Part shown: piece by piece, positions 1 to 64,000 of the stretch | How positions within the stretch are numbered: the stretch's first letter is position 1 | Layout: the number at the start of each line of letters is the position of its first letter | Source of the DNA: Loxodes magnus | Taxonomy: Eukaryota; Ciliophora; Karyorelictea; Loxodida; Loxodidae | Assembly (NCBI GenBank): GCA_946699065.1 | Contig: CAMPDV010000928.1 | Span: 1 to 64,000 of the forward strand | DNA length: 64,000 bases | Direction of reading: 5' to 3' | Position numbers and translations under genes: made by a program | Notes under the pieces: generated by a model | Told to the model about the DNA's origin: nothing | Seen by the model: the letters and a program-made list of their open reading frames with translations, nothing else | Databases searched by the model: none

Positions 1-3000
1 TATAAAAAAAAGTCTGAAAATGAAAAATGTTCATAAATATCTTTTAGAAAGAGAGAATAAAGATATTTTAAAAATTTCGAAATTAGGTGTCGAAAAAAGA
101 ATAGTCAAAGAGTAAAAATAAAAGTAGAGAATTATAAAAAAAAGTATGAAAATGAAAAATGTTCATAAATATCTTTTAGAAAGAGAGAATAAAGATATTT
201 TAAAAATTTCGAAATTAGGTGTCGAAAAAAGAATAGTCAAAGAGTAAAAATGAGAAGTAGAGAATTATAAAAAAAAGTATGAAAATGAAAAATGTTCATA
301 AATATCTTTTAGAAAGAGAGAATAAAGATATTTTAAAAATTTCGAAATTAGGTGTCGAAAAAAGAATAGTCAAAGAGTAAAAATAAAAGTAGAGAATTAT
401 AAAAAAAAGTGTAAAGACCAAAAATGTTCATAAATATCTTTTAGAAAGAGAGAATAAAGATATTTTAAAAATTTCGAAATTAGGTGTCGAAAAAAGAATA
501 GTCAAAGAGTAAAAATGAGAAGTCGAAAATTATAAAAAAAAGTGTAAAGACCAAAAATGTTCATAAATATCTTTTAGAAAGAGAGAATAAAGATATTTTA
601 AAAATTTCGAAATTAGGTGTCGAAAAAAGAATAGTCAAAGAGTAAAAATGAGAAGTCGAAAATTATAAAAAAAAGTATGAAAATGAAAAATGTTCATAAA
701 TATCTTTTAGAAAGAGAGAATAAAGATATTTTAAAAATTTCGAAATTAGGTGTCGAAAAAAGAATAGTCAAAGAGTAAAAATGAGAAGTCGAAAATTATA
801 AAAAAAGTATGAAAATGAAAAATGTTCATAAATATCTTTTAGAAAGAGAGAATAAAGATATTTTAAAAATTTCGAAATTAGGTGTCGAAAAAAGAATAGT
901 CAAAGAGTAAAAATGAGAAGTCGAAAATTATAAAAAAAAGTATGAAAATGAAAAATGTTCATAAATATCTTTTAGAAAGAGAGAATAAAGATATTTTAAA
1001 AATTTCGAAATTAGGTGTCGAAAAAAGAATAGTCAAAGAGTAAAAATGAGAAGTCGAAAATTATAAAAAAAAGTATGAAAATGAAAAATGTTCATAAATA
1101 TCTTTTAGAAAGAGAGAATAAAGATATTTTAAAAATTTCGAAATTAGGTGTCGAAAAAAGAATAGTCAAAGAGTAAAAATGAGAAGTCGAAAATTATAAA
1201 AAAAGTATGAAAATGAAAAATGTTCATAAATATCTTTTAGAAAGAGAGAATAAAGATATTTTAAAAATTTCGAAATTAGGTGTCGAAAAAAGAATAGTCA
1301 AAGAGTAAAAATGAGAAGTCGAAAATTATAAAAAAAAGTGTAAAGACCAAAAATGTTCATAAATATCTTTTAGAAAGAGAGAATAAAGATGTTTTAAAAA
1401 TTTCGAAATTAGGTGTCGAAAAAAGAATAGTCAAAGAGTAAAAATGAGAAGTCGAAAATTATAAAAAAAAGTATGAAAATGAAAAATGTTCATAAATATC
1501 TTTTAGAAAGAGAGAATAAAGATATTTTAAAAATTTCGAAATTAGGTGTCGAAAAAAGAATAGTCAAAGAGTAAAAATGAGAAGTCGAAAATTATAAAAA
1601 AAGTATGAAAATGAAAAATGTTCATATATATCTTTTAGAAAGAGAGAATAAAGATATTTTAAAAATTTCGAAATTAGGTGTCGAAAAAAGAATAGTCAAA
1701 GAGTAAAAATGAGAAGTCGAAAATTATAAAAAAAAGTCTGAAAATGAAAAATGTTCATAAATATCTTTTAGAAAGAGAGAATAAAGATATTTTAAAAATT
1801 TCGAAATTAGGTGTCGAAAAAAGAATAGTCAAAGAGTAAAAATGAGAAGTCGAAAATTATAAAAAAAAGTATGAAAATGAAAAATGTTCATAAATATCTT
1901 TTAGAAAGAGAGAATAAAGATGTTTTAAAAATTTCGAAATTAGGTGTCGAAAAAAGAATAGTCAAAGAGTAAAAATGAGAAGTCAAAAATTATTAAAAAA
2001 AGTATGAAAATGAAAAATGTTCATAAATATCTTTTAGAAAGAGAGAATAAAGATATTTTAAAAATTTCGAAATTAGGTGTCGAAAAAAGAATAGTCAAAG
2101 AGTAAAAATGAGAAGTCGAAAATTATAAAAAAAAGTATGAAAATGAAAAATGTTCATAAATATCTTTTAGAAAGAGAGAATAAAGATTTTTTAAAAATTT
2201 CGAAATTAGGTGTCGAAAAAAGAATAGTCAAAGAGTAAAAAATAAAAGTAGAGAATTATAAAAAAAAGTATGAAAATGAAAAATGTTCATAAATATCTTT
2301 TAGAAAGAGAGAATAAAGATATTTTAAAAATTTCGAAATTAGGTGTCGAAAAAAGAATAGTCAAAGAGTAAAAATGAGAAGTCGAAAATTATAAAAAAAA
2401 GTATGAAAATGAAAAATGTTCATAAATATCTTTTAGAAAGAGAGAATAAAGATATTTTAAAAATTTCGAAATTAGGTGTCGAAAAAAGAATAGTCAAAGA
2501 GTAAAAATAAAAGTAGAGAATTATAAAAAAAAGTATGAAAATGAAAAATGTTCATAAATATCTTTTAGAAAGAGAGAATAAAGATATTTTAAAAATTTCG
2601 AAATTAGGTGTCGAAAAAAGAATAGTCAAAGAGTAAAAATGAGAAGTCGAAAATTATAAAAAAAAGCGTAAAGACCAAAAATGTTCATAAATATCTTTTA
2701 GAAAGAGAGAATAAAGATATTTTAAAAATTTCGAAATTAGGTGTCGAAAAAAGAATAGTCAAAGAGTAAAAATGAGAAGTCGAAAATTATAAAAAAAGCG
2801 TAAAGACCAAAAATGTTCATAAATATCTTTTAGAAAGAGAGAATAAAGATATTTTAAAAATTTCGAAATTAGGTGTCGAAAAAAGAATAGTCAAAGAGTA
2901 AAAATGAGAAGTCGAAAATTATAAAAAAAAGTGTAAAGACCAAAAATGTTCATAAATATCTTTTAGAAAGAGAGAATAAAGATATTTTAAAAATTTCGAA

Positions 3001-6000
3001 ATTAGGTGTCGAAAAAAGAATAGTCAAAGAGTAAAAATGAGAAGTCGAAAATTATAAAAAAAGTATGAAAATGAAAAATGTTCATAAATATCTTTTAGAA
3101 AGAGAGAATAAAGATATTTAAAAAATTTCGAAATTAGGTGTCGAAAAAAGAATAGTCAAAGAGTAAAAATGAGAAGTCGAAAATTATAAAAAAAAGTGTA
3201 AAGACCAAAAATGTTCATAAATATCTTTTAGAAAGAGAGAATAAAGATATTTTAAAAATTTCGAAATTAGGTGTCGAAAAAAGAATAGTCAAAGAGTAAA
3301 AATGAGAAGTCGAAAATTATAAAAAAAAGTATGAAAATGAAAAATGTTCATAAATATCTTTTAGAAAGAGAGAATAAAGATATTTTAAAAATTTCGAAAT
3401 TAGGTGTCGAAAAAAGAATAGTCAAAGAGTAAAAATGAGAAGTCGAAAATTATAAAAAAAAGTATGAAAATGAAAAATGTTCATAAATATCTTTTAGAAA
3501 GAGAGAATAAAGATATTTTAAAAATTTCGAAATTAGGTGTCGAAAAAAGAATAGTCAAAGAGTAAAAATGAGAAGTCGAAAATTATAAAAAAAAGTGTAA
3601 AGATGAAAAATGTTCATAAATATCTTTTAGAAAGAGAGAATAAAGATATTTTAAAAATTTCGAAATTAGGTGTCGAAAAAAGAATAGTCAAAGAGTAAAA
3701 ATGAGAAGTCGAAAATTATAAAAAAAAGTATGAAAATGAAAAATGTTCATAAATATCTTTTAGAAAGAGAGAATAAAGATATTTTAAAAATTTCGAAATT
3801 AGGTGTCGAAAAAAGAATAGTCAAAGAGTAAAAATGAGAAGTCGAAAATTATAAAAAAAAGTATGAAAATGAAAAATGTTCATAAATATCTTTTAGAAAG
3901 AGAGAATAAAGATATTTTAAAAATTTCGAAATTAGGTGTCGAAAAAAGAATAGTCAAAGAGTAAAAATGAAAAGTAGAAAATTATAAAAAAAAGTATGAA
4001 AATGAAAAATGTTCATAAATATCTTTTAGAAAGAGAGAATAAAGATATTTTAAAAATTTCGAAATTAGGTGTCGAAAAAAGAATAGTCAAAGAGTAAAAA
4101 TGAGAAGTCGAAAATTATAAAAAAAAGTATGAAAATGAAAAATGTTCATAAATATCTTTTAGAAAGAGAGAATAAAGATATTTTAAAAATTTCGAAATTA
4201 GGTGTCGAAAAAAGAATAGTCAAAGAGTAAAAATGAGAAGTCGAAAATTATAAAAAAAAGTATGAAAATGAAAAATGTTCATAAATATCTTTTAGAAAGA
4301 GAGAATAAAGATATTTTAAAAATTTCGAAATTAGGTGTCGAAAAAAGAATAGTCAAAGAGTAAAAATGAGAAGTCGAAAATTATAAAAAAAAGTGTGAAA
4401 ATGAAAAATGTTCATAAATATCTTTTAGAAAGAGAGAATAAAGATATTTTAAAAATTTCGAAATTAGGTGTCGAAAAAAGAATAGTCAAAGAGTAAAAAT
4501 GAGAAGTCGAAAATTATAAAAAAAGTATGAAAATGAAAAATGTTCATAAATATCTTTTAGAAAGAGAGAATAAAGATATTTTAAAAATTTCGAAATTAGG
4601 TGTCGAAAAAAGAATAGTCAAAGAGTAAAAATGAGAAGTCGAAAATTATAAAAAAAAGTATGAAAATGAAAAATGTTCATAAATATCTTTTAGAAAGAGA
4701 GAATAAAGATATTTTAAAAATTTCGAAATTAGGTGTCGAAAAAAGAATAGTCAAAGAGTAAAAATGAGAAGTCAAAAATTATAAAAAAAAGTATGAAAAT
4801 GAAAAATGTTCATAAATATCTTTTAGAAAGAGAGAATAAAGATATTTTAAAAATTTCGAAATTAGGTGTCGAAAAAAGAATAGTCAAAGAGTAAAAATGA
4901 GAAGTCGAAAATTATAAAAAAAAGTATGAAAATGAAAAATGTTCATAAATATCTTTTAGAAAGAGAGAATAAAGATATTTTAAAAATTTCGAAATTAGGT
5001 GTCGAAAAAAGAATAGTCAAAGAGTAAAAATGAAAAGTAGAAAATTATAAAAAAAAGTATGAAAATGAAAAATGTTCATAAATATCTTTTAGAAAGAGAG
5101 AATAAAGATATTTTAAAAATTTCGAAATTAGGTGTCGAAAAAAGAATAGTCAAAGAGTAAAAATAAAAGTAGAGAATTATAAAAAAAAGTATGAAAATGA
5201 AAAATGTTCATAAATATCTTTTAGAAAGAGAGAATAAAGATATTTTAAAAATTTCGAAATTAGGTGTCGAAAAAAGAATAGTCAAAGAGTAAAAATGAGA
5301 AGTCGAAAATTATAAAAAAAAGTATGAAAATGAAAAATGTTCATAAATATCTTTTAGAAAGAGAGAATAAAGATATTTTAAAAATTTCGAAATTAGGTGT
5401 CGAAAAAAGAATAGTCAAAGAGTAAAAATGAAAAGTAGAAAATTATAAAAAAAAGTATGAAAATGAAAAATGTTCATAAATATCTTTTAGAAAGAGAGAA
5501 TAAAGATATTTTAAAAATTTCGAAATTAGGTGTCGAAAAAAGAATAGTCAAAGAGTAAAAATGAGAAGTCGAAAATTATAAAAAAAAGCGTAAAGATGAA
5601 AAATGTTCATAAATATCTTTTAGAAAGAGAGAATAAAGATATTTTAAAAATTTCGAAATTAGGTGTCGAAAAAAGAATAGTCAAAGAGTAAAAATGAAAA
5701 GTCGAAAATTATAAAAAAAAGTATGAAAATGAAAAATGTTCATAAATATCTTTTAGAAAGAGAGAATAAAGATATTTTAAAAATTTCGAAATTAGGTGTC
5801 GAAAAAAGAATAGTCAAAGAGTAAAAATGAGAAGTCGAAAATTATAAAAAAAAGTGTAAAGACCAAAAATGTTCATAAATATCTTTTAGAAAGAGAGAAT
5901 AAAGATATTTTAAAAATTTCGAAATTAGGTGTCGAAAAAAGAATAGTCAAAGAGTAAAAATGAGAAGTCGAAAATTATAAAAAAAAGTATGAAAATGAAA

Positions 6001-9000
6001 AATGTTCATAAATATCTTTTAGAAAGAGAGAATAAAGATATTTTAAAAATTTCGAAATTAGGTGTCGAAAAAAGAATAGTCAAAGAGTAAAAATGAGAAG
6101 TCGAAAATTATAAAAAAAAGTGTAAAGATGAAAAATGTTCATAAATATCTTTTAGAAAGAGAGAATAAAGATATTTTAAAAATTTCGAAATTAGGTGTCG
6201 AAAAAAGAATAGTCAAAGAGTAAAAATGAGAAGTCGAAAATTATAAAAAAAAGTATGAAAATGAAAAATGTTCATAAATATCTTTTAGAAAGAGAGAATA
6301 AAGATATTTTAAAAATTTCGAAATTAGGTGTCGAAAAAAGAATAGTCAAAGAGTAAAAATGAGAAGTCGAAAATTATAAAAAAAAGTATGAAAATGAAAA
6401 ATGTTCATAAATATCTTTTAGAAAGAGAGAATAAAGATATTTTAAAAATTTCGAAATTAGGTGTCGAAAAAAGAATAGTCAAAGAGTAAAAATGAGAAGT
6501 CGAAAATTATAAAAAAAAGTGTAAAGACGAAAAATGTTCATAAATATCTTTTAGAAAGAGAGAATAAAGATATTTTAAAAATTTCGAAATTAGGTGTCGA
6601 AAAAAGAATAGTCAAAGAGTAAAAATGAGAAGTCGAAAATTATAAAAAAAAGTATGAAAATGAAAAATGTTCATAAATATCTTTTAGAAAGAGAGAATAA
6701 AGATATTTTAAAAATTTCGAAATTAGGTGTCGAAAAAAGAATAGTCAAAGAGTAAAAATGAGAAGTCGAAAATTATAAAAAAAAGTATGAAAATGAAAAA
6801 TGTTCATAAATATCTTTTAGAAAGAGAGAATAAAGATATTTTAAAAATTTCGAAATTAGGTGTCGAAAAAAGAATAGTCAAAGAGTAAAAATGAGAAGTA
6901 GAAAATTATAAAAAAAAGTATGAAAATGAAAAATGTTCATAAATATCTTTTAGAAAGAGAGAATAAAGATATTTTAAAAATTTCGAAATTAGGTGTCGAA
7001 AAAAGAATAGTCAAAGAGTAAAAATGAGAAGTCGAAAATTATAAAAAAAAGTGTAAAGACGAAAAATGTTCATAAATATCTTTTAGAAAGAGAGAATAAA
7101 GATATTTTAAAAATTTCGAAATTAGGTGTCGAAAAAAGAATAGTCAAAGAGTAAAAATGAGAAGTCGAAAATTATAAAAAAAAGTATGAAAATGAACAAT
7201 GTTCATAAATATCTTTTAGAAAGAGAGAATAAAGATATTTTAAAAATTTCGAAATTAGGTGTCGAAAAAAGAATAGTCAAAGAGTAAAAATGAGAAGTAG
7301 AAAATTATAAAAAAAAGTATGAAAATGAAAAATGTTCATAAATATCTTTTAGAAAGAGAGAATAAAGATATTTTAAAAATTTCGAAATTAGGTGTCGAAA
7401 AAAGAATAGTCAAAGAGTAAAAATGAGAAGTCGAAAATTATAAAAAAAAGTATGAAAATGAAAAATGTTCATAAATATCTTTTAGAAAGAGAGAATAAAG
7501 ATATTTTAAAAATTTCGAAATTAGGTGTCGAAAAAAGAATAGTCAAAGAGTAAAAATGAGAAGTCGAAAATTATAAAAAAAAGTGTAAAGACGAAAAATG
7601 TTCATAAATATCTTTTAGAAAGAGAGAATAAAGATATTTTAAAAATTTCGAAATTAGGTGTCGAAAAAAGAATAGTCAAAGAGTAAAAATGAGAAGTCGA
7701 AAATTATAAAAAAAAGTGTAAAGATGAAAAATGTTCATAAATATCTTTTAGAAAGAGAGAATAAAGATATTTTAAAAATTTCGAAATTAGGTGTCGAAAA
7801 AAGAATAGTCAAAGAGTAAAAATGAGAAGTCGAAAATTATAAAAAAAAGTATGAAAATGAACAATGTTCATAAATATCTTTTAGAAAGAGAGAATAAAGA
7901 TATTTTAAAAATTTCGAAATTAGGTGTCGAAAAAAGAATAGTCAAAGAGTAAAAATGAGAAGTCGAAAATTATAAAAAAAAGTGTGAAAATGAAAAATGT
8001 TCATAAATATCTTTTAGAAAGAGAGAATAAAGATATTTTAAAAATTTCGAAATTAGGTGTCGAAAAAAGAATAGTCAAAGAGTAAAAATGAGAAGTCGAA
8101 AATTATAAAAAAAAGTATGAAAATGAAAAATGTTCATAAATATCTTTTAGAAAGAGAGAATAAAGATATTTTAAAAATTTCGAAATTAGGTGTCGAAAAA
8201 AGAATAGTCAAAGAGTAAAAATGAGAAGTCGAAAATTATAAAAAAAAGTATGAAAATGAAAAATGTTCATAAATATCTTTTAGAAAGAGAGAATAAAGAT
8301 ATTTTAAAAATTTCGAAATTAGGTGTCGAAAAAAGAATAGTCAAAGAGTAAAAATGAGAAGTCGAAAATTATAAAAAAAAGTGTAAAGACGAAAAATGTT
8401 CATAAATATCTTTTAGAAAGAGAGAATAAAGATATTTTAAAAATTTCGAAATTAGGTGTCGAAAAAAGAATAGTCAAAGAGTAAAAATGAGAAGTCGAAA
8501 ATTATTAAAAAAAAGTATGAAAATGAAAAATGTTCATAAATATCTTTTAGAAAGAGAGAATAAAGATATTTTAAAAATTTCGAAATTAGGTGTCGAAAAA
8601 AGAATAGTCAAAGAGTAAAAATGAGAAGTCGAAAATTATAAAAAAAAGTATGAAAATGAACAATGTTCATAAATATCTTTTAGAAAGAGAGAATAAAGAT
8701 ATTTTAAAAATTTCGAAATTAGGTGTCGAAAAAAGAATAGTCAAAGAGTAAAAATGAGAAGTCGAAAATTATAAAAAAAAGTATGAAAATGAAAAATGTT
8801 CATAAATATCTTTTAGAAAGAGAGAATAAAGATATTTTAAAAATTTCGAAATTAGGTGTCGAAAAAAGAATAGTCAAAGAGTAAAAATGAGAAGTCGAAA
8901 ATTATAAAAAAAAGTATGAAAATGAACAATGTTCATAAATATCTTTTAGAAAGAGAGAATAAAGATATTTTAAAAATTTCGAAATTAGGTGTCGAAAAAA

Positions 9001-9803
9001 GAATAGTCAAAGAGTAAAAATGAGAAGTCGAAAATTATAAAAAAAAGTGTAAAGATGAAAAATGTTCATAAATATCTTTTAGAAAGAGAGAATAAAGATA
9101 TTTTAAAAATTTCGAAATTAGGTGTCGAAAAAAGAATAGTCAAAGAGTAAAAATGAGAAGTCGAAAATTATAAAAAAAAGTGTAAAGATGAAAAATGTTC
9201 ATAAATATCTTTTAGAAAGAGAGAATAAAGATATTTTAAAAATTTCGAAATTAGGTGTCGAAAAAAGAATAGTCAAAGAGTAAAAATGAGAAGTCGAAAA
9301 TTATAAAAAAAAGTATGAAAATGAAAAATGTTCATAAATATCTTTTAGAAAGAGAGAATAAAGATATTTTAAAAATTTCGAAATTAGGTGTCGAAAAAAG
9401 AATAGTCAAAGAGTAAAAATGAGAAGTAGAAAATTATAAAAAAAAGTATGAAAATGAACAAATGTTCATAAATATCTTTTAGAAAGAGAGAATAAAGATA
9501 TTTTAAAAATTTCGAAATTAGGTGTCGAAAAAAGAATAGTCAAAGAGTAAAAATGAGAAGTCGAAAATTATAAAAAAAAGTATGAAAATGAACAATGTTC
9601 ATAAATATCTTTTAGAAAGAGAGAATAAAGATATTTAAAAATTTCGAAATTAGGTGTCGAAAAAAGAATAGTCAAAGAGTAAAAATGAGAAGTCGAAAAT
9701 TATAAAAAAAAGTGTAAAATGAAAATTGTTCATAAATATCTTTTAGAAAGAGAGAATAAAGATATTTTAAAAATTTCGAAATTAGGTGTCGAAAAAAGAA
9801 TAT
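1..9803. repeat. 132-133-bp tandem satellite, about 74 units
   Basis: Head-to-tail array starting before the window edge and ending where the unit breaks off near 9803. Successive copies of the phrase TTCATAAATAT lie 132 or 133 bp apart. Each unit has a nearly invariant core of about 95 bp and a linker of about 38 bp that varies by class (linker forms GTATGAAAATG, GTGTAAAGACC, GTGTAAAGATG, GTGTAAAGACG, GAACAATG). The core holds a perfect 12-bp palindrome, AATTTCGAAATT. Most units are 133 bp, so a reading frame would rotate from unit to unit. The core encodes a short Lys/Glu-rich peptide in one frame, but I see no sign that it is translated. It is most likely a satellite; a centromeric or other structural role is only a guess. 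Confidence 0.97.
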
Positions 9804-11395
9804 TCAAGATCAAATCTTAATATTTTAAGTAAGATTTGCGATTCATAATACTCAAAAGATTTTGATTTTCTCAAGTGATTTTTTGATAATAGTATGCGAA
9901 ATTTATCCATTAACCTCGCTTTTGTTTCTCTAACTCATTTTGTGTGGAATTAAAGATTAATAAAGAAATCGACAAATTTTTTCTATAATCAAATGTTCTC
10001 CTAAAATTTTTCTAGAAAGCTAATATAAATTAAAAAATTTTTATAGATCATAGAAAAACAAGATCTTATGCTTATTAAATCTATCGAAATTGAATAAAAT
10101 ATCTACTACTAAAGCATCGATAAATTTACTAAGTGAATTATCAATTTATCTACTAAAGAGTAAATTGAATTCAAGAATCAATAATATAAATATAATTTTA
10201 AAGATTATAAAATTATTCATTATTTTTCAAATAAAAATCACCAATTGAATGCTTTGATTTTCAAATGAAGAAATTAATAATGCTTACCAATAAGTGAAAA
10301 AGCTATAAGCAATTTAAATCAAGAAAAAGAAAAAAAATATAAAGATTGGTTAAAGTCAAAAAAAGAAGAAATGGTTGTATTTTATTAAATTCCAATCTTA
10401 AATATTTATATAGAATTAAATGAAATGAAAAAATAAATTGAGAATTTCCTCTCTTGAAAAAGAAGTATGAGACTATAAAAAAATCAAAAATATAAAATAA
10501 AATTAGAGTGATAAAAATAGAGAAGTTAAAGCGTTAAGTATGATTATTTTTATTTATATAAATTTATTGCTAAAGAATGGGAAAAACTTATTTATGTGGA
10601 ATAAATTTTATACATTAAATTTAAATTTTCAGACTTCCAAGTAAAATTTCAATTATTTATTTTAAATAATAAAAGAGATTGTAAATATAAAAAGTACTTT
10701 AATATTTTAAATCAAATACTAAAATGTAAATTAATTTAAATTTTTCTTTATATAGATAATTTCTATATTTAATCAGTTTATTTCAAATTATCTCACACTA
10801 ATAGCTTAATTATTTCATCTGTTTAAATTTGCTTTTTTTATAAAATTCTAATCAAATAATTACAATAAATAATTAATAATTTAGAATATAATCTTAATGA
10901 ATAGTCATTTAAATTATAAGGTATAATTAGTTGGTTAATAGGAGAATGTTTTACTTATATAATTAAAATTAAAATTAATTTTTTCCAAAGTTATTTTCAA
11001 ACCAGCTCAAATAACTAATAGAAATCTGATTTTTTTTAGCTTTTTTGTTTTGTAAAAAGAACATAAATGCTCTAAGATGCTTTTTTAATAAATTGTTTTG
11101 CAAATATTTAACAATTTTTTTTAATATATTAATTTTAGATTTAGTTAAAGGATTTTTAAATCTAGTAAATAATTTTTTTTTTAATTATATTTTAAATTTC
11201 TCTTTTTAAATTTGTTCTTTAAGTTCTATATCCATTGGAACTACTTTGAAGTTTTTTTTTTCGTTTTTCTTCAATTACCTAGCGATTCTTTCTATTTTAA
11301 CTTTTTTAGTCAATTTGTTGATGAGTGATTTTAGTTGTACTAAATATTGAAATATTTAATTTCCTTTTTTAGAGGAGAAGTAGATAGATATAATC
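9804..11395. other. AT-rich stretch, no gene recognised
   Basis: This follows the satellite directly and shares no unit with it beyond the last partial copy. It is AT-rich with short poly-A and poly-T runs. No protein motif, tRNA or strong hairpin was recognised on either strand. Open frames mean little here because all three stop codons are sense in this genome. Confidence 0.5.
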
Positions 11396-20044: not shown

Positions 20045-23000
20045 ATGAAAGCTATTTTAGTTTTGTTTCTCTTTACTTTGGGACTTTCAGAATTAAATGT
20101 TCTAATCTCTGGAAATTAGTATGTTGAACTTCTTCCTTATGAAAACATAACTCTAAAGGCTAAAGCTTTTGATTAGAATACCTAAGATATAAAATACATA
20201 TGAACATGTTAAATTTAATAAGAAGTTCTTTAGTATGATGACAAGTTAGTAAATTAGATTATAAGAACATGTAGTGCTTAAGGCCCCTAATTACTTATTT
20301 GTGCTTAGTCATTTCCAGTAGGCGCTTTTCTTGCTATTACAATGAATGCTTCTACATCTGATGGAAGATTTGGACTTAGCACAGTCTAAGTACATATAAC
20401 TCAAAGCCTTTACTCTCCAGTTTCTATTAGTCTTGAATAAAACGATTTTAATATAGTAAACTAAGACTCTTTATTTGTCCTATATGCAAAAGTACGTGAT
20501 TCTAATTTTCAAATTAAGTAGACTTCTTGAACTTAAAATCCTGGGAATATTGAAGAAGTTTCACTCTTCGAAACGAACTTAAATTTTATCTTAGTAAATG
20601 CTTCTCATCTTAGTCAAGGTGAATAATATACTTACGCAATATCAATATAAGATGCTAATGATTTTACCTTCATAAGATAAAGAATAGTTTATGTAAATAA
20701 AGCTCCTAATTGTGGGTAATTTTCGGTAAGTCCTTAAATGGGATAGGCATGAGAAACCCTGTTCTAAATGTAATGTCTTAACTGCTCCGATTTAGAAGGA
20801 AACTATTCTCTGTAGTACCAATTTTTTTATCTAACCAAGTCAAGTGAAGAATTGCCATTAAGCATAAAAAGTGAGCAGTAAGAATGAATTTTTAAGTTGC
20901 CTTAGTTTGCTAATTACTCTGACTAAAACTTGATAGTAGGAGTAAGTATATGTGACTAGTTTGAAAGTTGTACTAAAATGTTATAAACTATCTCAGTGCA
21001 TAAGTCACTTTGAGATGTTAACTACGAAATACAAAATATCGACTATAGAGTCTTTAATTCTAGCTTAGAGAAAAAGAACTTTTTATATAACTTAGCTATA
21101 GAAATGAGCTATAGCTCTTAGACTATTTTTAAACAGAATTAGATGGAGCTCTTGGAATAATTGTCTTCTAATATAAATACACTAGAAAAGCAGAAAATAG
21201 CAATTTAAGGGTTTTAAGAAATTTATAGATTGATAGAATCTGAAGATATATAGAGATATATTAACTACTTAGATAGATGTCTAGATTGAAATGAGAACTA
21301 AGAGCTTAAATTTGATTAGTTAAATTCTATCATAACAATAATTGATAATCTATTGTATAAATAGAGTAAAATAAATTAAAGGTAAATGAGGTAGATGATA
21401 GATGGGAAATAAATGAAGTAGGAGAAGGAATAATTTAGGGAATCTTTGAGATAGCTACGCTAAACAAAAGAATAACTTAAGTCAACAATCTGGTAATTAA
21501 TATAAAAATCTTCTTTACTTTTTGCAATGTCTAATCTGGCACCTAGTAAATGATACCCCTAGAAGCACTTATGATTAAAGTCTAACTTAAATTTTTCAAT
21601 AGAGCTTGTTAGATGAAATCCCTTTTTCTTTGAAGATTTAGTTCCTAATTTTTTAGTTAATCCTATACCTGATAGAGGACACTTCTCTATACTAGCAAGC
21701 TTTACTAATAATCCCTGTGAAAATAGCTCAATTTAAATGACTCATTTAGGTATAGAGGTATACAAAGGTTGATAAATATATGATAATGACACTTGGTCTG
21801 GGTTAAATATTCCCTTGAAATAGTCTATAAGTACTGATTATACGCTTTATTTTTAAGAAACCAATATCGAAGCTCTTATATGCTAGATGTGAGATTCAGA
21901 TCAATAAATCTGAATTAACGAGTTTTCATGCTTATTATAAGACAAACTAAGAGTTTTTGTACGTTTGCAAGTGTCAAAAATCGGGGATTTTAAGAATAAA
22001 TTACAAAAGTGATTAAAGTTAAGAAGAGATTTAATAATCAGAACACGATGAAGAGTTTGAAGAAGGTTCTGAAGAAGAGTTTGAAGATTAAGAGGACTTT
22101 GAGGAAAATGAAAAGCCATCTTCAACCAAAGAGGAAGTTTAAGACATAAATGTGAATTATTAAAGTTCTGAAAGTAAGTATAGTGAAGATTTTTATGGTA
22201 AATCAATTCCATTTTATACACTTCTATGCCTCTCATCGATTTATACCTTTCTTATAATATTCTAATGTGGATATTTCAAATGTAATAACTCAAATAGTCA
22301 GAATAATGCCTAAAGTAATTAGTAAGTCCTACTTAGTCATTCTACCTGATAGACATTATGTGATTATTCATCTCTAACTGGTCCGTGAAAAAATCCTAAA
22401 TCTAAAAAAATGGTCAAACATATCTCTCTCCTTTTGATAGACTGAGTAATAGCTTAAATCTGTTTTTTTACTAACCTTGCTTCTGCATCTTAAAACACTA
22501 AGGAGAGCAATCTTTAATAATAAGACTTCATAGCTGCTTTATGAATAGCTTTTATAGTAACAATCTGGAAGACTTTAAACATCTGCCTTCTTCTAAAGTT
22601 TTAAGGAATATAGCGTTGCTTCATTTGCAGTCAATTAGTAATGTGCCTCGCAGTTACAACCTGGATATGCTTCAGATTTGACACTGAGGATTACTCTCCC
22701 TGAATTTAAAGTCTTCTAATCAGCTACTTTCTCTACCTTCTAATTTTAGATCCTATTTTTACATTCTTACTTATAAAGCTCATTTCTAAGATGTAGTTCT
22801 ACTAGGTTTTGAATAATTATTCTCCAATCTAACCTATAAATATTCATAACCCTAGCAACAATTTAGAGTTAACTAACGTTCCAGTATATTTAGCTTAGTA
22901 AATATCTTCCAATACTCTAATGAATATCAACAATAATATAAAATAGGATATTCCATTTGTCCAAATTAATTGCTGCATTAATCCTCAGAATAAAAATTCT

Positions 23001-23600
23001 CAGTGATAGTCATAAAGCTCGATAATAGAGAGTATGCCTGGAATGGTTTAGATGGATCAGCTTAATAATAATAATTTAAATAATGATTCAAGTGATTAGC
23101 TTTAAAACTCCGTTTATATTCCATAACCAATTGAGAATAAATTACCATCAGGTAACTTTTGCTAAACTTTGGACGGAAATAGTTAAATAAATATGCATAA
23201 CGTATAGGAAAGTGGTTAGGAGTTAAACTAGGAATGGTCTAATCAAATAGACTAGAGAATGAACATATGATTTGCTTATCTAATTAGCTTTTTATTTTAA
23301 TTGAGTATATTAACAAAATTTCTAAGCCATTTTATGAATAGTAAGCTAAATGCTTAATTGTCTATATATAAATTATTATTTGAGTGAGGTAAGCAAGAAA
23401 AAGATAAGAGTATAAAGTTAAAGTTGGCAGGTAATGGTTTGAAAATGAATTATGACAAAACTTGCAGCCTTTAAAATCTATTAATTATTGCTTTAAAGCT
23501 TACTAATTATTTTTTCCTGGCTTTTTTGCATTTTTTTGTTTTATAGTTACGATTATTTAAATAGATAACTATTTTAAAATTAAGGATAAATATTAAAATC
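20045..23600 (+). CDS. REJ/GPS-domain multi-pass membrane protein (polycystin-1-like)
   Basis: Starts at ATG 20045 with a signal peptide (MKAILVLFLFTLGL). A large extracellular part follows, with a REJ-like block near residues 215-330 (C-x-x-F-x-V-S-P-x-x-G-x-A-W-x-T-L-F). Near residue 615 comes a GPS motif, CQMWDSDQQIWINEFSC, as in GAIN-domain receptors that cleave themselves. An acidic linker is followed by at least six hydrophobic spans, then a cytosolic Asn/Gln-rich tail and one more span. REJ-GPS-multi-TM architecture is that of polycystin-1/REJ proteins at the cell surface. Many UAR codons read as Gln. In-frame TGA codons fall at Trp positions, including both conserved GPS Trp. A +1 shift is needed between the GPS Cys (about 21930) and the acidic linker; a 19-nt GT-AG segment there could be an intron. 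The end is uncertain: a TGA at about 23380 or a later point before the tRNA. It is the fullest of three family copies here. Confidence 0.85.
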
Positions 23601-23611
23601 ATCAAAAAAAA

Positions 23612-23685
23612 CGCCACCGGGTGGACTTGAACCACCGACCTTTTGGTTAACAGCCAAACGCTCTAACCTATTGAGCTACGGAGGC
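23612..23685 (-). tRNA. tRNA-Asn (GUU)
   Basis: The minus strand folds into a standard 74-nt cloverleaf. Anticodon loop CTGTTAACC gives anticodon GUU. The T arm is GGTGGTTCAAGTCCACC, and the D arm contains TAGCTCAATAGGTTAGAGC. Acceptor stem GCCTCCG pairs with CGGTGGC except for a U-U mismatch at the fourth pair. On its 3' side (plus-strand 23604-23610) lies an A-run, that is, a T-run terminator on the coding strand. It lies just past the REJ/GPS gene. An identical copy is at 30165-30238. Confidence 0.97.
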
Positions 23686-23699
23686 TCTTATTAAACTAT

Positions 23700-26220
23700 C
23701 TTTACATCCTTTAAATATTGTAATTAGATCTAACTTAGAAATTTTAGATGCATATTAAAGCAAGGAGAACAAGAACATATCTACCGATGAGAAAATTACA
23801 CTCCAAATAAACAGATCACAAATTTATTTAGTCACCACATAACTTAGCTAGAATCTTAATTGTTTTCTTAAATTTGATGATTAGACTAATACTAAAATAA
23901 ACTAAATTAAAGGGATAATTTAAGCTAATTTTCCTTTATCATTTTTAAGCACTTCTGAAATATTTCAAAATAAAGAGAATCCATAAATTATATTCTCCTT
24001 TACATTAGCATCACTATATAATAAATTTATATTATATGCTTTAATATTACATTCACTAGATTCATAAATAAGAGATATAGCGATAATTCAAAAATGCTAT
24101 AAGAGAAATAAATGTTATTGAGAACCTTAATATTTCTTAATCTAGGACTTTTAATTAGAAGGAGCGAACTCTACTTTTCAATTAAGCTAATTAAAAATAA
24201 TAAACTTATATAGGCTAACAATTCTATTAGTTTCAATTATTTTCTAACTTCTTTCAAATAGATAATATAAAAGAGATCTAAAGCTGATTCTAATTTTAGG
24301 TTATACTCTCTAACTTAAGAGTCATTATGTTTAACTATATATCCATTTAATTTAAATTATATATCTAACTGAAGCTTTTTAACTTGAATCTTGCTTAATG
24401 TAATCAAATATCAAAAATTTAACTTTAGACTTATTAAATTTATTTGGTAACTTAAATAAGTTCTAGTTGGACGAGCCCTAATATACCTTTTATACTAAAA
24501 CTTTGATTATAAAAGGGATAATTATAACTAACTTTTCAGTTTATAAAACTGGCATAGCATTAAGCAAAAAGCTATTTATATGTTTCTAGTTATCTAAACT
24601 GAGAGTACTTTCAGCCCTTTCGATTGTTATTTTACTTGTAATCTCTAAAGCCTAAAAATCAGAGGTAAAATTTAGTTTTTGTTCTCTATTTTTTCCTAAT
24701 TTGTATTTAAAAAAGATTACAACTACAGTCATGCTTAATTTCTCTGTAAGTAGTATACTCATAAATTTAATTAAGGGCTCATTTGGCTCTTTTATAACTA
24801 TAAATAGATAATAATTTTATAAGTTTATTAAACTCATTTTTTTCATTTTTGCTTCAATTAAAAGTTAGAATGAAAAATGCTAAACAGCTTTTATTAATTT
24901 TGTCTTGCTATATCGCAAAAAAGTAACTATTAGCTTATAATGTTCTTAAGATAAGCTTCTTATAATTATTTCTCTTTTAAAAAGCGAGTTAAGATTGAAA
25001 TTTGATGCTTAAGATTTTTTACTAGTATATGATTAGTTAATATTTCAAAGCTTAATTGGCTTCCAGTCTTTTTTAAAAGCAACCAGAAGAGTCTTTTGTG
25101 AGTATACTATTTATAATTTCAATTCTGAGATTTAACTTAGAAATAAAGCATAAAAAGTGGTAAAATTTCATGGACTTATATGTTTAGAGGGATGAATTTT
25201 CCTTTTTGAGAGTAAGAGTGAATACAAAATTTAAAAGAAACTCGAGAAGAAAACCAAGGAAAATCAAACAACAATAAATAAACCCTTAAAGACAAATAAA
25301 GCGAGCTTGCCATTAATTATCCTCTTTAAATTTATATCTTAGTTTTCTTAAATCTAGCAGGTATTAAATACACATTCTTTACTTTTCCAAAGCTTAAGTT
25401 TATATCTTACCATTCTAGAATTATTACTCAACACTTGGCAAAAATATGCATATTTTCAATATTTTAAGCTATATGGGATATTAATAAGTTAAGGTTTCAA
25501 AGTCCTTATATTCTAATTAAAAATATATTATTAAAAATTGAAAGAAAGACCTGCTTGAACATAGTAAGAATATGACTGAAATGAGATAGTAATATAGAAG
25601 AGGAATTATATTCTAGCATTTGACTTTTTTTATAGCTTAAATCTATGATATTTTAATATACTAAATCCAATCCTTAATTAATGAAGATGCTTTATACTTA
25701 TCTCAAAATTCCTTGCTTTTTAAAAAATAAGAAGCTCTTTTTAGTTGAAATGTGCTTTTTTAATCCAAATAAAGTGAATATAAAAACTACTATAGATAGC
25801 TATGAATTCTCATATTAGAGTATAGGAATGCTAAAATCTTTAAGGGATTAAAGGAGAAACTACTTTTCAACTTAATGATGTTTAAGGGAAAATATCTAAG
25901 ACAAGATTACTTATATCAATTTTTCTAATTAGTTACTATATAAAGACTCGATAGAACCAAAAGTAAATTAGCAAGATTTACTTTATAGATTATCATTTCA
26001 TAATTTAGTAGGAAGAGTGAGAAAATACCGTTTAAGTCTTTTGTGAAAAAACCTTGCAGATTTAGAGCTAACGAGGACAAGAATAGGCATTATAAATATC
26101 ATAAAGACTATAAATAAAACAAGGTAGTAATTAGAAGGTTGATTTTTTATATTGAACTTAAAATTTAATAAATAAATATGAAAAGATTAATGAAGACAGT
26201 ACAGTTTAAAGTTAAAAGAG
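23700..26220. other. Duplicated flank downstream of tRNA-Asn; coding strand unresolved
   Basis: Both strands give long readable frames. The plus strand reads as a hydrophobic protein (RNKCYWEPQYFLIQDFQLEG; DAQDFLLVYDQLIFQSLIGF). The minus strand reads as a helical, Lys-rich, HEAT/ARM-like one (FSLFWNISEVLKNDKGKLAQ). DNA similarity to 30620-32400 at matching distances from the two tRNA-Asn genes shows this flank was part of the same duplication. At aligned spots both strands keep some residues (plus: KKLFICFQL versus KKFICYQL; minus: a shared SDF and a similar NSFL/QTFL step), so conservation does not settle the strand. I report it as a candidate coding region only. Confidence 0.35.
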
Positions 26221-30164: not shown

Positions 30165-30238
30165 CGCCACCGGGTGGACTTGAACCACCGACCTTTTGGT
30201 TAACAGCCAAACGCTCTAACCTATTGAGCTACGGAGGC
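30165..30238 (-). tRNA. tRNA-Asn (GUU), second copy
   Basis: Identical over all 74 nt to the gene at 23612-23685, including the acceptor-stem U-U mismatch, and in the same position after a REJ/GPS copy. The flanks have diverged far more, which suggests selection or gene conversion on the tRNA. Confidence 0.97.
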
Positions 30239-43454: not shown

Positions 43455-44450
43455 AATTAAATAATGTTCGCCTTTCAGCTTAATAAAATAATTTTTATGA
43501 TATCACTCTCATTCTGAAACTCTTAGGTCTTCATTATTGTTTTGATTTGATTTTTTTTAGTTTAGTTTCTCTTCTTTTTGTATCTTAGTTCATTCTAAAA
43601 ATAATTATTTTAAGTCTTCTTTATTCAAATATTACTAATGGATTTATTTTTCCATCAATCATTCTTAAAATCAAGTTATTTGTTAATGTTTTTGTTTTAT
43701 GCTAGACCATGTTTTTTAATCTTAAGATCAATATCTTCTAGGATTTATTTATTCTTTTTTGTTTCTTAATTTATTAATATTTGATTACATTCTAGCATTT
43801 CTTTTAAATTTTTCTCTATTTTTTATTAGTTTCATTGTTTATTGTATATTTATTATTTCCTTCTTTTCAGATTTATGTTTATGTGTAAGTTTTATAATGT
43901 TTCTTGTATCTGAAGACTGTTTTCTTATATAATTTATCTGTAATACTAGCAATCAAAGACATGTTCAAATTTTTCTTATTGCTAACAAATGCATAGTATC
44001 TACTCTTAATCAATATGTCTTTCTGAGAGATCAGCTCTAAAAAATATTAATTGCGTTCTTAGTCTATAAATTAATTTTTATTCTTTTATTAATTCTTTGT
44101 TTGTTGTTATATAAGTAATTTTTTTTAATTTAGTCTCATTTTTATATTGTCTATAAATTATTTCGGCTGTTTTCATATCTTATATTCTCTATATCGTTTC
44201 CTCGAAAAATTTTTTTGTATTTTTTTTAGATTTCTTTAGTATAATTGTTTATGTTAAGATCTTTTATTTATTCATTGTTTATTTCATAGTATTATTCAAT
44301 TTTTTTAATTCTTTTTTAGACTGATTAAAGATAAAATAAGTTGAAGTTTATATTTTTTCTTCTGTTTTCAAATATTTAATTTTATTTCCATCCTCGCTCT
44401 ATAACTTTAAGATGAATTAACTTGGTATATTTACCAAATACAGAAATAAT
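43455..44450 (-). CDS. Coiled-coil protein
   Basis: One minus-strand frame runs about 330 codons with no frame change: LQSEDGNKIKYLKTEEKIQT, KKFFEETIQRIQDMKTAEII, RADLSERHIDQEQILCICQQ, KEMLECNQILINQETKKNKQ. It is dominated by Lys, Gln, Glu, Asn and Ile in heptad-like spacing, typical of long cytoskeletal or ciliary coiled coils. Only a few TGA codons occur, all acceptable as Trp (for example NDWWKN, one TGA then one TGG). No globular domain is recognised. Start and stop are not defined by clear signals. Confidence 0.6.
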
Positions 44451-48279: not shown

Positions 48280-49530
48280 TCATAATTTAAACCTTACTCA
48301 AATTTACTCTACTTTGGATTAGACTATACAATTTTTGTGAGTGATAATTAAATGTTCTTAGCATATATTAAAAAATTTATAATGTTTTTTATTTAATTAA
48401 ACAGATCTTTTGTTATTATATTTATAAAGGCTTAGCTAGGACAGATTGTTACTTATTTATATTTTTTATAATATTTACTTTTATATTATGCTATGTTATA
48501 CTTTTAAAATCAAAATGCCTCTTTAGAGTTGTCCTTGTAAATTACTCTTGTTGGAGACATTTATTGGTAACTGATTTTATTTTATGTTTACAGAGTAATA
48601 ATTAAAGGTTTTTATATAATAAGATAGAAATAATTTTAGAGTGTACTTAAGATTTGAAATGATAATAGAAATAAATAACTCTGATTATAGACATAAATTA
48701 GAAGTTAATCATAAAATATGTAAATAAAGTAGTTTAAGAGTACACTACATCTTAATAGTATTAAACTAGAGAAATCTTACTAATAATATTAGTAGATTAA
48801 ATAAAATAGAAGATATAGACAGAGGATATTAATAAATAGGTGCTATAAAAATAAGTAGTTAATATATTAATTAGAATATAAAATAGGGTTATAAAGTATA
48901 GACTGAATAGTGCTATATAATATTAGTAATGAAAAGGAATAATAATGAAGTAGTTATTTATAATAAGAATAATAATGTTAAATAAGCTAAATTCTTACAT
49001 CTGCTTTAATCATACTATTACATTTTATAGGTTATAAATTAAGTAATTATCTATTAAAAATTTTAAAAATAGGAGCAACCATGCCGCAGTAACACTTTAA
49101 CACTTTATTACATTTACAAGAATGGCTGAATCAAACTAACTAACAACATGTTTATTTACTATTATTTAAGATAAGTATTTCATAATTCATAAAGCACACA
49201 TTTTATGAAGAGGAGATCAGATCATTACATATTATCCTTCTATTCAAAAATTACTGAAGCTATTTTAAAGATTAATAGAACGAATAAAAATCAACACTTC
49301 TAGAAATATTTTAAAAATCAAAGAACTATTATCAAGAAATCTAATACATTAGGAAAAAAAACTATAGCTATTATCAAAATATTACCTATATTATTAATTC
49401 ACACATCTCCTTAATAGGAATCAATTTTTGGTTAATAAAGTGAAAAAAGTGAGAAAGTTAGTAAAGAACTTAAAATATAATGCTATTATGATTCGTAACT
49501 TTAAAATAACTAAAGTAACTAAGTCAAAAA
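48280..49530. other. AT-rich region, no gene recognised
   Basis: A purine-rich part at 48640-48960 and a mixed part to 49500. No convincing frame, motif or RNA structure on either strand. Confidence 0.35.
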
Positions 49531-49539
49531 TTTATAAAT

Positions 49540-52150
49540 AATAAAACTTTAATTTAAGATAAATATTTAAAGTAGTCAAATGTTATATCCATCTCCGCTA
49601 ATATCAAAAATTACACTCTAAAATAAAAAATTTACTTATCATTAAATTCTTTACATCCTAAAATAGAAAAAAGTTACCTAGTATAAATAATCTAAAATTA
49701 ACAATTACTTTAACATTCTTTAATACATTATATTAGGAATTACTTTCTTTTCAAATCAATCATTACCCCCTATAAATAAAAATAATATTACATTCTATAT
49801 AATTTTCTTACTATCTTAGGTAAAACAATACAAGCTCATATAAGCAAATACTAGCTACAATAAAAACAAAACCATCTTATAATTATTTCTTACAATCAAA
49901 AATTAAAAAGATACCTAAAGTAGATTCTTACCGCCTGAGGTAATTTAATACCATCTTATAATAATAAAAAAATACAAGCTATAATAGTTTTTAAATACAA
50001 ACTGTGAATAAAAAATATCTTACACTCTATAAATATTTAAAATATCTTACTCACTATAAATATTTAAAATATCTTACCATCTATAAATATTTAAAATATC
50101 TTACATTCTATAAATATTTAAAATATCTTACACTCTATAAATATTTAAAATTCTTACAATCTATAAATATTTAAAATATATTACAATCTATAAATATTTA
50201 AAATATCTTACTCATCTATAAATATTTAAAATATCTTACACTCTATAAATATTTAAAATATGTTACCATCTATAAATATTTAAAATATATTACAATCTAT
50301 AAATATTTAAAATATCTTACTCACTATAAATATTTAAAATATCTTACATTCTATAAATATTTAAAATATCTTACATTCTATAAATATTAAAATATCTTAC
50401 TCACTATAAATATTTAAAATATCTTACATTCTATAAATATTTAAAATATCTTACTCCCTATAAATATTTAAAATATCTTACCATCTATAAATATTTAAAA
50501 TATATTACAATCTATAAATATTTAAAATATCTTACATTCTATAAATATTTAAAATATCTTACACTCTATAAATATTTAAAATATGTTACCATCTATAAAT
50601 ATTTAAAATATTTACATTCTATACATATTAAAATATCTTACTCACTATAAATATTTAAAATATCTTACATTCTATAAATATTTAAAATATCTTACAATCT
50701 ATAAATATTTAAAATATCTTACATTCTATAAATATTTAAAATATCTTACCGTCTATAAATATTAAAATATCTTACTCACTATAAATATTTAAAATATCTT
50801 ACCGTCTATAAATATTTAAAATATTTAACATTCTATAAATATTTAAAATATCTTACCCTCTATAAATATTTAAAATATGTTACCATCTATAAATATTTAA
50901 AATATCTTACATTCTATAAATATTAAAATATCTTACTCACTATAAATATTTAAAATATCTTACCGTCTATAAATATTTAAAATATTTAACATTCTATAAA
51001 TATTTAAAATATCTTACCCTCTATAAATATTTAAAATATGTTACCATCTATAAATATTTAAAATATCTTACATTCTATAAATATTAAAATATCTTACTCA
51101 CTATAAATATTTAAAATATCTTACATTCTATAAATATTTAAAATATCTTACATTCTATAAATATTTAAAATATCTTACCCTCTATAAATATTTAAAATAT
51201 CTTACATTCTATAAATATTTAAAATATTTTACATTCTATACATATTCTAAATATCTTACCGTCTATAAATATTTAAAATATCTTACCGTCTATAAATATT
51301 TAAAATATCTTACATTCTATAAATATTTAAAATATCTTACCCTCTATAAATATTTAAAATATGTTACCATCTATAAATATTTAAAATATCTTACATTCTA
51401 TAAATATTAAAATATCTTACTCACTATAAATATTTAAAATATCTTACATTCTATAAATATTTAAAATATCTTACCGTCTATAAATATTTAAAATATCTTA
51501 CCGTCTATAAATATTTAAAATTTCTTACCGTCTATAAATATTTAAAATATCTTACATTCTATAAATATTTAAAATATCTTACCATCTATAAATATTTAAA
51601 ATATCTATAAATATTTAAGATATCTTACATTCTATTTTTAATAGAAATACCATCTTATTTTAATTTTTACCTCCTTTATTAGTTTTTTTACTTGCTATAT
51701 ATTAAATAATTAACTTTCTGGATTTGTTAAATTACCAGCTTAACATAATTTTTTTACAATCTTCTTTATTTTTTACATTCTATATTTAGTTTTTACTCCC
51801 TTTCTTATATTTTTACAATCTTATTTATTTTATTACATTCTTAAATTTTATTTATTACTTTCTAGTTTTAAAAGTATTACTAACTTTTGATAAATATATT
51901 ACGCACTTTTTTAAAATTTACCTCCTGTACATTATTTCAAACTTTCGTCGAAGTCATTTTAGCCTTCTTTAAATTTTCTTACTTTCTCCTATTTTTTATT
52001 ATTTAATACTTTCTAATTTTATTATTTACATTCTGATATTATATTATTACCATATTATTTTCTCATTATCTCAAAAACTAATTTTGATTAATTACTTCCT
52101 ATTTTTAATATTTACTTCCTAAATTTTATCTTATTATCTAACCTCCTTAA
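49540..52150. repeat. 27-bp AT-rich satellite with degenerate flanks
   Basis: The core array (about 50010-51640, roughly 60 units) repeats CTATAAATATTTAAAATATC followed by TTAC and a variable trinucleotide (ATT, TCA, CAT, AAT, ACT, CGT, CCT). Units of 26-28 bp occur, so no reading frame is kept. Both flanks (49540-50010 and 51640-52150) carry irregularly spaced TTAC-N-N-TC motifs in AT-rich sequence, like degenerate edges of the array. The right flank overlaps the 3' end of the RING gene. Function unknown. Confidence 0.9.
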
Positions 52151-60429: not shown

Positions 60430-61570
60430 ATTAGATTTATCTATTCAATTGCCAATACTTGCTTTCGACATTGTATAAATATCTCAAGCGTAATAATATA
60501 ATCAATAAGGAATTTAATTTGGAAAAGCAGGAAAGAGTATTGAAGCTATCGAATATTTTGATATAGCTATTATAATAGACCCTAAAAAAGCAAATTTTCA
60601 TTTTAATAAGGAATTGTACTTTAAAAGTTAGAAAAATACAACGAAGCTCCCTAGAGCTACAATATAGATCTCAAGCAGAATCTAATAATGCAATTGTTCA
60701 TATAATAAAGTAGTTGATCTGAAAAATTAAGAAAAACAAATGAAACCAATGAAAGTTTTAACTAAGCTATAAAACTAAGCAATGCCAATCTAATCTACTT
60801 AAAAATAAAGGTTTTTCCCTCTAAAAATTAGGAAATTATCATGAAGGAATGTAATTTTTCAATCAGCCATTAACTTGATAATAAATACGCAGATGCTTAT
60901 TATGATAAAGGTCTTTGTCTTCAAACCAAAAACAAGAATCAAGAAGAAATATAAATTTCCATAAAGTAAACTATTTAAACACGAATCTTAAATTTCATCG
61001 AAAAGAGTCTCAATAAAGTCGCCAATAAAAGAAATAAAAACAGAAAAAATGATAAAGAAGTTCTTACAGTAAAAAAATGGGAATTAAGAGGTTCGAAAAT
61101 GGACAAAAGAAATTTGATTCTGATAAAAATTTCTAGAGAAATTGCAGAAAATAGCTTGTGACAAATTGGAACAACTAACCTGATAGATATCAAAAAATGT
61201 ATGCCTTGCCTGAAATAACCAAAGAATAGAGTGATAAAAAAAGAAAAGTTAAGATTAAGTGAAGAGAAAATGCGCAACTAAAAGGCTTACAAAATTAAAC
61301 TAATAAGTATAGCAAATAAAACTTAAGAGTTAGGTGTTTAAAATGATCTTTATAATAAAGGAAAAAAACAAAGAAATTTAGATCAAGCTGTAGAAAAAGA
61401 TATTCAATATAAAAAAGTAAATTCAGCTTACTAAGCAAAGTTTTGACGGCTGGAGGGCAAAAGTCATTTTGTGCTGTTTTGTAAAGGAAATATTGATGAA
61501 GAAAAAAATTTAAATTTAAATCTAAATAAAAAGGCTGTATTTTAAGAAGACTGTAGTGTAATATCATAAG
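60430..61570 (+). pseudogene. TPR-repeat protein with a frameshift
   Basis: The first repeat, YNQQGIQFGKAGKSIEAIEY followed by FDIAIIIDP, is a canonical tetratricopeptide repeat. The next repeat continues in another frame, GIVLQKLEKYNEAPQSYNID. The junction (HFN-K-G) fits loss of one G at about 60610. Later weaker repeats include YADAYYDKGLCLQTKNKNQE and NDLYNKGKKQRNLDQAVEKD. TPR proteins are protein-binding scaffolds. Continuous Lys-rich sequence separates the repeats. It is probably a degenerating member of a TPR family, or a functional gene with a sequencing error. No clear start ATG was found. Confidence 0.6.
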
Positions 61571-61579
61571 TTAAAAATA

Positions 61580-62100
61580 CCTCAAAGAAGAAATATAATC
61601 TGAAGCATGCTTCTTTATAATTTAGATTTGAAAAAAAAAGTTAAACGTTTCAATACAGACAATATTTTTAAAAGATATTAAATAAATTTTAATTGAATGT
61701 TTTTAAAAATTAAAAGTAGAAAAAAAAGGAGTCATCAAAGGAAATTCAAATAAAATAAAGTGTAAATATAAGAATTGCTAAAAAAATTAATGAAAAGAAA
61801 CATGTTAAAACTAAAAACTGTTAATTTTTTAATCGAAGTTAATTTTTAAAATAAATATAAAATACTTTAAATAAATATCGAAATATTTTAAGAATAGTCA
61901 AAAATGAAAAAAAGAAAGTGTCAGAAAAATAAGAAAAAACTCAAAAAAAAAGATTATTGTAAAGATATAAAAAGAAAAAAAATAAAAGAGTTAAGGGATA
62001 AAATCAAGTTCAAAAAAAAGAGAAAAAAACATGAGGATTTTGCTACGTCTTTTAAATTTATATTTAAAAAAATCAGAATAACAATACCAAAAAAAATCTT
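61580..62100 (+). other. Lys-rich stretch after the TPR locus
   Basis: Strongly A-rich on the plus strand. An ATG at 61904 opens a run of Lys/Arg/Asn codons (MKKRKCQKNKKKLKKKDYCK) that turns hydrophobic where it overlaps the minus-strand locus. It is probably compositional or a tail of the TPR locus, not a gene of its own. Confidence 0.3.
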
Positions 62101-62109
62101 CCGCTTTTT

Positions 62110-63900: not shown

Positions 63901-64000
63901 TAATAAAAGATATATTCAACTTAAAGAAAAATATACACAGGAAAAGATTAATTTAAGATATTAAGAAAGAAGAAAAAGTAATTTAATATAAATTTAATCT

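What the first reader, a model, noticed from the sequence alone, without database searches (positions are those of the whole stretch)
20045..23600. All three stop codons are read as sense: TAA/TAG = Gln and TGA = Trp
In the REJ/GPS gene, long homologous protein is obtained only if TAA, TAG and TGA are all translated. TGA falls exactly where the protein family requires Trp: both Trp of the GPS motif (CQMWDSDQQIW), the REJ G-x-A-W-x-T-L-F, and the GPW and DW positions of the membrane region. TAA/TAG fall in Gln-like contexts. Known relatives are the karyorelict code (table 27) and the Condylostoma code (table 28), where stop versus sense depends on context. A second ciliate code of this type would be notable if the organism is neither.
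Basis: partly seen in the sequence, partly recalled or inferred. Interest (0 to 1): 0.95.

Follow-up and report, generated by a model that had tools for sequence, protein, structure and literature searches.

The report
Known stop-as-sense code of Loxodes
This DNA very probably comes from the single-celled ciliate Loxodes magnus, in which all three usual stop signals also spell amino acids; that code is already described for its group, but the genome also shows the likely machinery, a modified tryptophan tRNA in more than a hundred copies.

Summary
The window lies in a 705,730,643-base genome, matching the 706 Mbp published for the Loxodes magnus macronuclear assembly. Loxodes is a karyorelict, whose code (table 27: TAA/TAG = Gln, TGA = Trp or stop) is known. 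The window's REJ domain scores best with TGA = Trp among ten readings (86.3 bits, next 81.0). In 29 REJ domains and 30 kinases of this genome, columns holding TGA are 56 and 72 times enriched in TGG-coded Trp; TAA/TAG columns are enriched in Gln. TGA stands within two codons of the matched C-terminus in 10 of 12 actin-family genes; the other 2 have TAA. [quoted passage not shown] No credible tRNA(UCA) turned up. That tRNA type is already reported for Loxodes; I saw no paper on its amplification, and the control with other tRNAs did not complete. A known code in a known clade; the tRNA copy number is the detail worth following.

The parts
20045..21952 (+). First coding part (frame f0) of a REJ-family protein with in-frame TAA, TAG and TGA
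   Evidence: PF02010 E 2.2e-24 under table 27; codon counts
21953..21971 (+). Candidate 19-bp intron that would explain the change from frame f0 to f1
   Evidence: GT..AG, length 1 mod 3; one of two such candidates there; published mean intron length of Loxodes 19.3 bp. Not confirmed by RNA
21972..23388 (+). Second coding part (frame f1), hydrophobic stretches by eye, Trp mostly TGA; the 3' end is not fixed
   Evidence: Three-frame reading; TGA list; no Pfam match in this frame
23612..23685 (-). tRNA-Asn(GTT) just downstream of the gene
   Evidence: ARAGORN, Rfam 72.3 bits
52071..52676 (-). Probable second gene: RING finger plus ubiquitin-like domain, TAA/TAG read as Gln, no Trp before the first in-frame TGA (52073-52071)
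   Evidence: Pfam E 1.6e-4 and 4.1e-4 in one frame, both below the curated cut-offs; translation and coordinates

Best explanation
The window is nuclear DNA of the karyorelict ciliate Loxodes magnus, which uses the ambiguous karyorelict code (table 27). UAA and UAG are read as Gln; UGA is read as Trp inside genes and as stop at gene ends. Shown here by sequence comparison: the sense meanings, and TGA at conserved C-termini. Inferred: the organism (from assembly size and code), and that UGA is read by an amplified tRNA-Trp(CCA) whose anticodon stem is shortened to 4 bp, as others showed for Blastocrithidia and Condylostoma, with eRF1 winning only near the mRNA 3' end.
For: Genome of 705,730,643 bases against 706 Mbp published. 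TGA = W best of ten readings. Kinases: D-x-W column 7 TGA, 22 TGG, 1 Tyr of 30; TGA columns 72x enriched in W, TAR columns 6.9x in Q. REJ: columns of 9 TGA + 9 TGG of 18, and 15 TGA + 13 TGG + 1 Phe of 29; TGA columns 56x in W, TAR columns 3.1x in Q. TGA within two codons of the matched end in 10 of 12 actin-family genes and at the end of both eRF1 copies on contig C196. tRNA-Trp(CCA) with 27:43 mismatch: 46 of 46 genes read (19 A.C on C67, 27 T.C on C148), flagged by Infernal on the C67 type; core counted 124 times against 3 for the A43 core.
Against: No rRNA was compared. Sense-coded Gln leads TAR columns only by enrichment; by raw weight Lys and Glu (kinases) or Ser and Lys (REJ) are commoner there. 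One of four TGA in the window's REJ domain is not in a Trp column and one is in a mixed Trp/Leu column. In 2 of 12 actin-family genes TAA, not TGA, stands at the expected end. UGA use in this gene (20 of 1128 codons) is far above the 0.12% published for the karyorelict Parduczia. The stop of the window gene was not fixed. The tRNA-Gln search did not complete. Nothing here shows translation.
Confidence: 0.93

Rival explanations
1. The gene is a decayed copy (pseudogene) in which Trp codons TGG mutated to TGA, in a ciliate where TGA is only a stop.
For: The frame changes once and the terminal stop was not fixed. The genome has 93 REJ matches, many on the same contigs with similar scores.
Against: Every one of the 93 listed REJ matches holds TGA. 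TGA shares Trp columns with TGG across 29 REJ domains and in high-scoring kinases, 14 of 30 of which hold TGA. In the window gene TGA outnumbers TGG 20 to 5 while the REJ domain still scores 86 bits. The frame change fits a Loxodes-sized intron. A decayed window gene would not alter the genome-wide result.
Confidence: 0.04
2. A Condylostoma-type code (table 28), in which TAA and TAG are also regular stops.
For: TAA stands one codon after the matched C-terminus in 2 of 12 actin-family genes.
Against: TGA ends the other 10 and both eRF1 copies on C196; no TAG end was seen. Assembly size matches Loxodes. UGA usage does not decide: both published values, 0.042% and 0.12%, are far below this gene.
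Confidence: 0.02

Closest known systems
Karyorelict nuclear code, NCBI table 27 (Parduczia, Loxodes)
   Same: TAA/TAG = Gln, TGA = Trp inside genes, TGA as stop at gene ends
   Different: TGA is used heavily in this gene (20 TGA to 5 TGG); 2 of 12 actin-family ends show TAA
Condylostoma magnum code, table 28
   Same: All 64 codons can be sense
   Different: There all three codons end genes; here TGA in 10 of 12 and TAA in 2 of 12 ends examined
4-bp anticodon-stem tRNA-Trp(CCA) of Blastocrithidia and Condylostoma
   Same: CCA anticodon with the top anticodon-stem pair broken; no credible UCA tRNA found
   Different: Core present 124 times, the 100 listed places on two contigs in tandem, beside 3 cores of the A43 type

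Membership tests
Karyorelict code (table 27) | TAA and TAG encode Gln | tested here: met
   Q is the most enriched sense-coded residue in TAR columns: 6.9x in kinases, 3.1x in REJ; not the commonest by raw weight
Karyorelict code (table 27) | TGA encodes Trp inside genes | tested here: met
   72x and 56x W enrichment; profile score
Karyorelict code (table 27) | TGA is the terminator | tested here: met
   10 of 12 actin-family ends and both eRF1 copies on C196; the other 2 of 12 show TAA
Karyorelict code (table 27) | Sense or stop set by distance to the mRNA 3' end | not testable with these tools
   Needs transcripts; reported by others
Karyorelict code (table 27) | Organism belongs to Karyorelictea | tested here: inconclusive
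   Assembly size equals that published for L. magnus MAC; lineage of that species; rRNA not compared
Condylostoma code (table 28) | All three codons serve as regular stops | tested here: inconclusive
   TGA 10, TAA 2, TAG 0 of 12 actin-family ends
Blastocrithidia code (table 31; number recalled) | TAA/TAG = Glu | tested here: not met
   Enrichment E 2.1x against Q 6.9x in kinases; E 1.45x against Q 3.1x in REJ
4-bp anticodon-stem tRNA-Trp(CCA) | Pair 27:43 broken, anticodon CCA | tested here: met
   46 of 46 genes read: 19 A.C on C67, 27 T.C on C148; ARAGORN drawing, Infernal. Base 27 was not read in the other counted cores
4-bp anticodon-stem tRNA-Trp(CCA) | No cognate tRNA(UCA) in the genome | tested here: inconclusive
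   One pattern: 56 places against 272 for the reversed control; 8 places taken out, none called as tRNA
4-bp anticodon-stem tRNA-Trp(CCA) | Reads UGA in the cell | not testable with these tools
   Needs an expression or reporter test

The most novel reading that the evidence does not exclude
The UGA-reading tRNA-Trp with the short anticodon stem has been amplified about 40-fold over the normal tRNA-Trp, in separate tandem arrays whose copies carry different broken 27:43 pairs. This would be a dosage solution that lets UGA outnumber UGG in some gene families, while genes such as eRF1 keep UGG.
Probability: 0.35. Interest if true: 0.55.

Novelty: already known. Interest (0 to 1): 0.27.

Why it matters
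A code with no dedicated stop codon bears on how termination is recognised. Here it is the known karyorelict code, so the window adds a clear example and no new code. The side result, 124 short-stem tRNA-Trp cores to 3 of the normal type, makes the proposed decoding mechanism directly testable in Loxodes.

Tried and rejected
A search of about 5.8 billion predicted proteins with residues 1-660 gave no relative. Pfam scans under table 27 of other parts gave no match over a curated cut-off. The matches at E up to 0.1 were the RING and ubiquitin-like pair and six single weak ones (DUF2002, E1_UFD, TPR_1, Lysis_col, SUB1_ProdP9, Arm_vescicular), which I took as chance. Not scanned: 1-20044, the minus strand of 20045-24000, 43793-44000, 49002-52000 and 61502-64000. 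For UCA anticodons, 56 places matched against 272 for the reversed control. Eight were taken out: seven tRNA-like repeats and one other. ARAGORN called none as tRNA, nor did Rfam; the other 48 were judged only from the listed letters. Papers: passages of PMC11441545, outline with abstract and passages of PMC4967479, passages of PMC13092985 and PMC12005148; all others only as search listings with the start of abstracts. Swart et al. 2024 (eLife RP93502), which is cited for the Loxodes tRNA, is not held and may describe the arrays. Seah et al. 2022 was not read. That I saw no paper on the arrays rests.

Full report
What is there. Frame f0 from 20045 encodes a protein with a REJ domain (PF02010, E 2.2e-24 under table 27). 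Up to 21955 the frame holds 12 TGA, 37 TAA and 21 TAG in 637 codons, against 2 TGG and 9 CAA/CAG. From about 21966 the protein continues in frame f1 with 8 TGA, 3 TGG, 40 TAA/TAG and 9 CAA/CAG in 491 codons. A 19-bp GT..AG stretch at 21953-21971 would join the two frames; a 22-bp stretch at 21973-21994 would too, and a one-base change is not excluded. Loxodes introns have a published mean of 19.3 bp. The GPS and membrane parts were named by eye; Pfam gave no match to either. The end of the gene is open: TGAs at 23385, 23440, 23446 and 23453 are candidates in one frame or another, and none starts between 23454 and 23627.

Is it more than chance. Reading TGA as Trp gives the REJ profile 86.3 bits; nine other residues give 73.8 to 81.0, Tyr being next. 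The genome search listed 93 REJ matches, each with at least one TGA inside. I aligned 29 domains: 28 taken from that list and the window's own. Sense-coded Trp is 56 times enriched in columns that hold TGA; Leu follows with 2.7 times. Two pairs of the 29 are more than 80% alike. Of 136 listed kinases I aligned the 30 that were given as loci, the best-scoring ones. TGA columns are 72 times enriched in Trp; the D-x-W column has 7 TGA, 22 TGG and one Tyr. Columns with TAA/TAG are most enriched in Gln, 6.9 times (kinases; Glu 2.1) and 3.1 times (REJ; Lys 1.8). By raw weight other residues are commoner there (Lys 30.8, Glu 30.6, Gln 17.1 in kinases; Ser 81.0, Lys 71.6, Gln 41.2 in REJ), because most Gln in this genome's genes is itself written TAA/TAG. 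The Gln meaning is thus less sharply shown here than the Trp meaning.

TGA also ends genes. From 96 actin-family matches I took 12 C-terminal ends; some of these are close relatives. Ten have TGA directly after the matched end or one or two codons on; two (C10, C193) have TAA one codon on, level with the usual end, which may be UAA stops. The two eRF1 copies on contig C196 end with TGA, have no TGA inside, 4 TGG each, and 20 and 21 TAA/TAG in 436 codons. They keep NIKS, preceded by GRAQ; that the usual motif is TASNIKS is recalled. A third eRF1_1 match (contig C2) showed none of three motifs I looked for and was left unresolved.

Which organism. The window is contig C928 of a genome of 705,730,643 bases in 7843 contigs. 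The paper on Loxodes magnus gives 706 Mbp for its MAC assembly, a large share of it tandem repeats, and names table 27 (passages). With the code and the candidate intron length I take this as the same assembly; it is an inference, since no rRNA was compared. Loxodes belongs to Karyorelictea.

How it probably works. A pattern for tRNA-Trp(CCA) (271 places against 87 for the reversed control) led to two types. One has a broken 27:43 pair, hence a 4-bp anticodon stem, in all 46 genes in which I read both bases: 19 A.C on C67 and 27 T.C on C148 (drawings; Infernal marks the mismatch on the C67 type). Its 19-base core with C43 occurs 124 times; the 100 places listed lie on C67 (about 187 bp apart) and C148 (mostly 241 bp apart), and 24 were not listed. 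The core with A43 occurs 3 times, all on C110; two were read and have T27-A43, a 5-bp stem. Both counts are of exact cores only. For anticodon UCA one pattern gave 56 places, fewer than the reversed control (272); the one tRNA-like group was not called as tRNA by either program. Others showed that the short-stem tRNA-Trp raises UGA readthrough, and it is already reported for Loxodes (passages). I infer that this tRNA reads UGA here. I saw no mention of the arrays, but the paper most likely to hold it is not in the library. The amplification may be nothing special: 43 of 96 actin-family matches score 450-460 bits over nearly the whole family, many on the same contigs, and counts for other tRNAs were never obtained.

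Verdict. It is the known karyorelict code in what is very probably a known karyorelict, so the finding is not a new code. What remains of interest is the tRNA gene ratio and the uneven use of TGA: 20 TGA to 5 TGG in this gene, 21 to 61 in 30 kinases, 0 to 4 in each eRF1 copy.

Noticed in passing
G000:C67:482319-491186 and G000:C148:155460-169425 (L028-L038, L044): Tandem runs of tRNA-Trp(CCA) genes with a 4-bp anticodon stem; core 124 times in the genome (100 places listed), against 3 of the A43 core on C110.
   Followed up: partly
G000:C266, C437, C711 and other contigs: 43 actin-family matches with nearly the same score (450-460 bits), many on the same contigs.
   Followed up: no
window 1-9807 and 50012-51606: Two satellite arrays, 133-bp unit (about 74 copies) and 27-bp unit (about 59 copies).
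   Followed up: no
window 23612-23685 and 30165-30238, minus strand: Two identical tRNA-Asn genes.
   Followed up: no
L108-L114: A dispersed repeat with a tRNA-like T arm and TCA at the anticodon position; not called as tRNA.
   Followed up: partly
L106 and L107 (contigs C10 and C193): Two actin-family genes with TAA one codon after the matched C-terminus, possible UAA stops.
   Followed up: no
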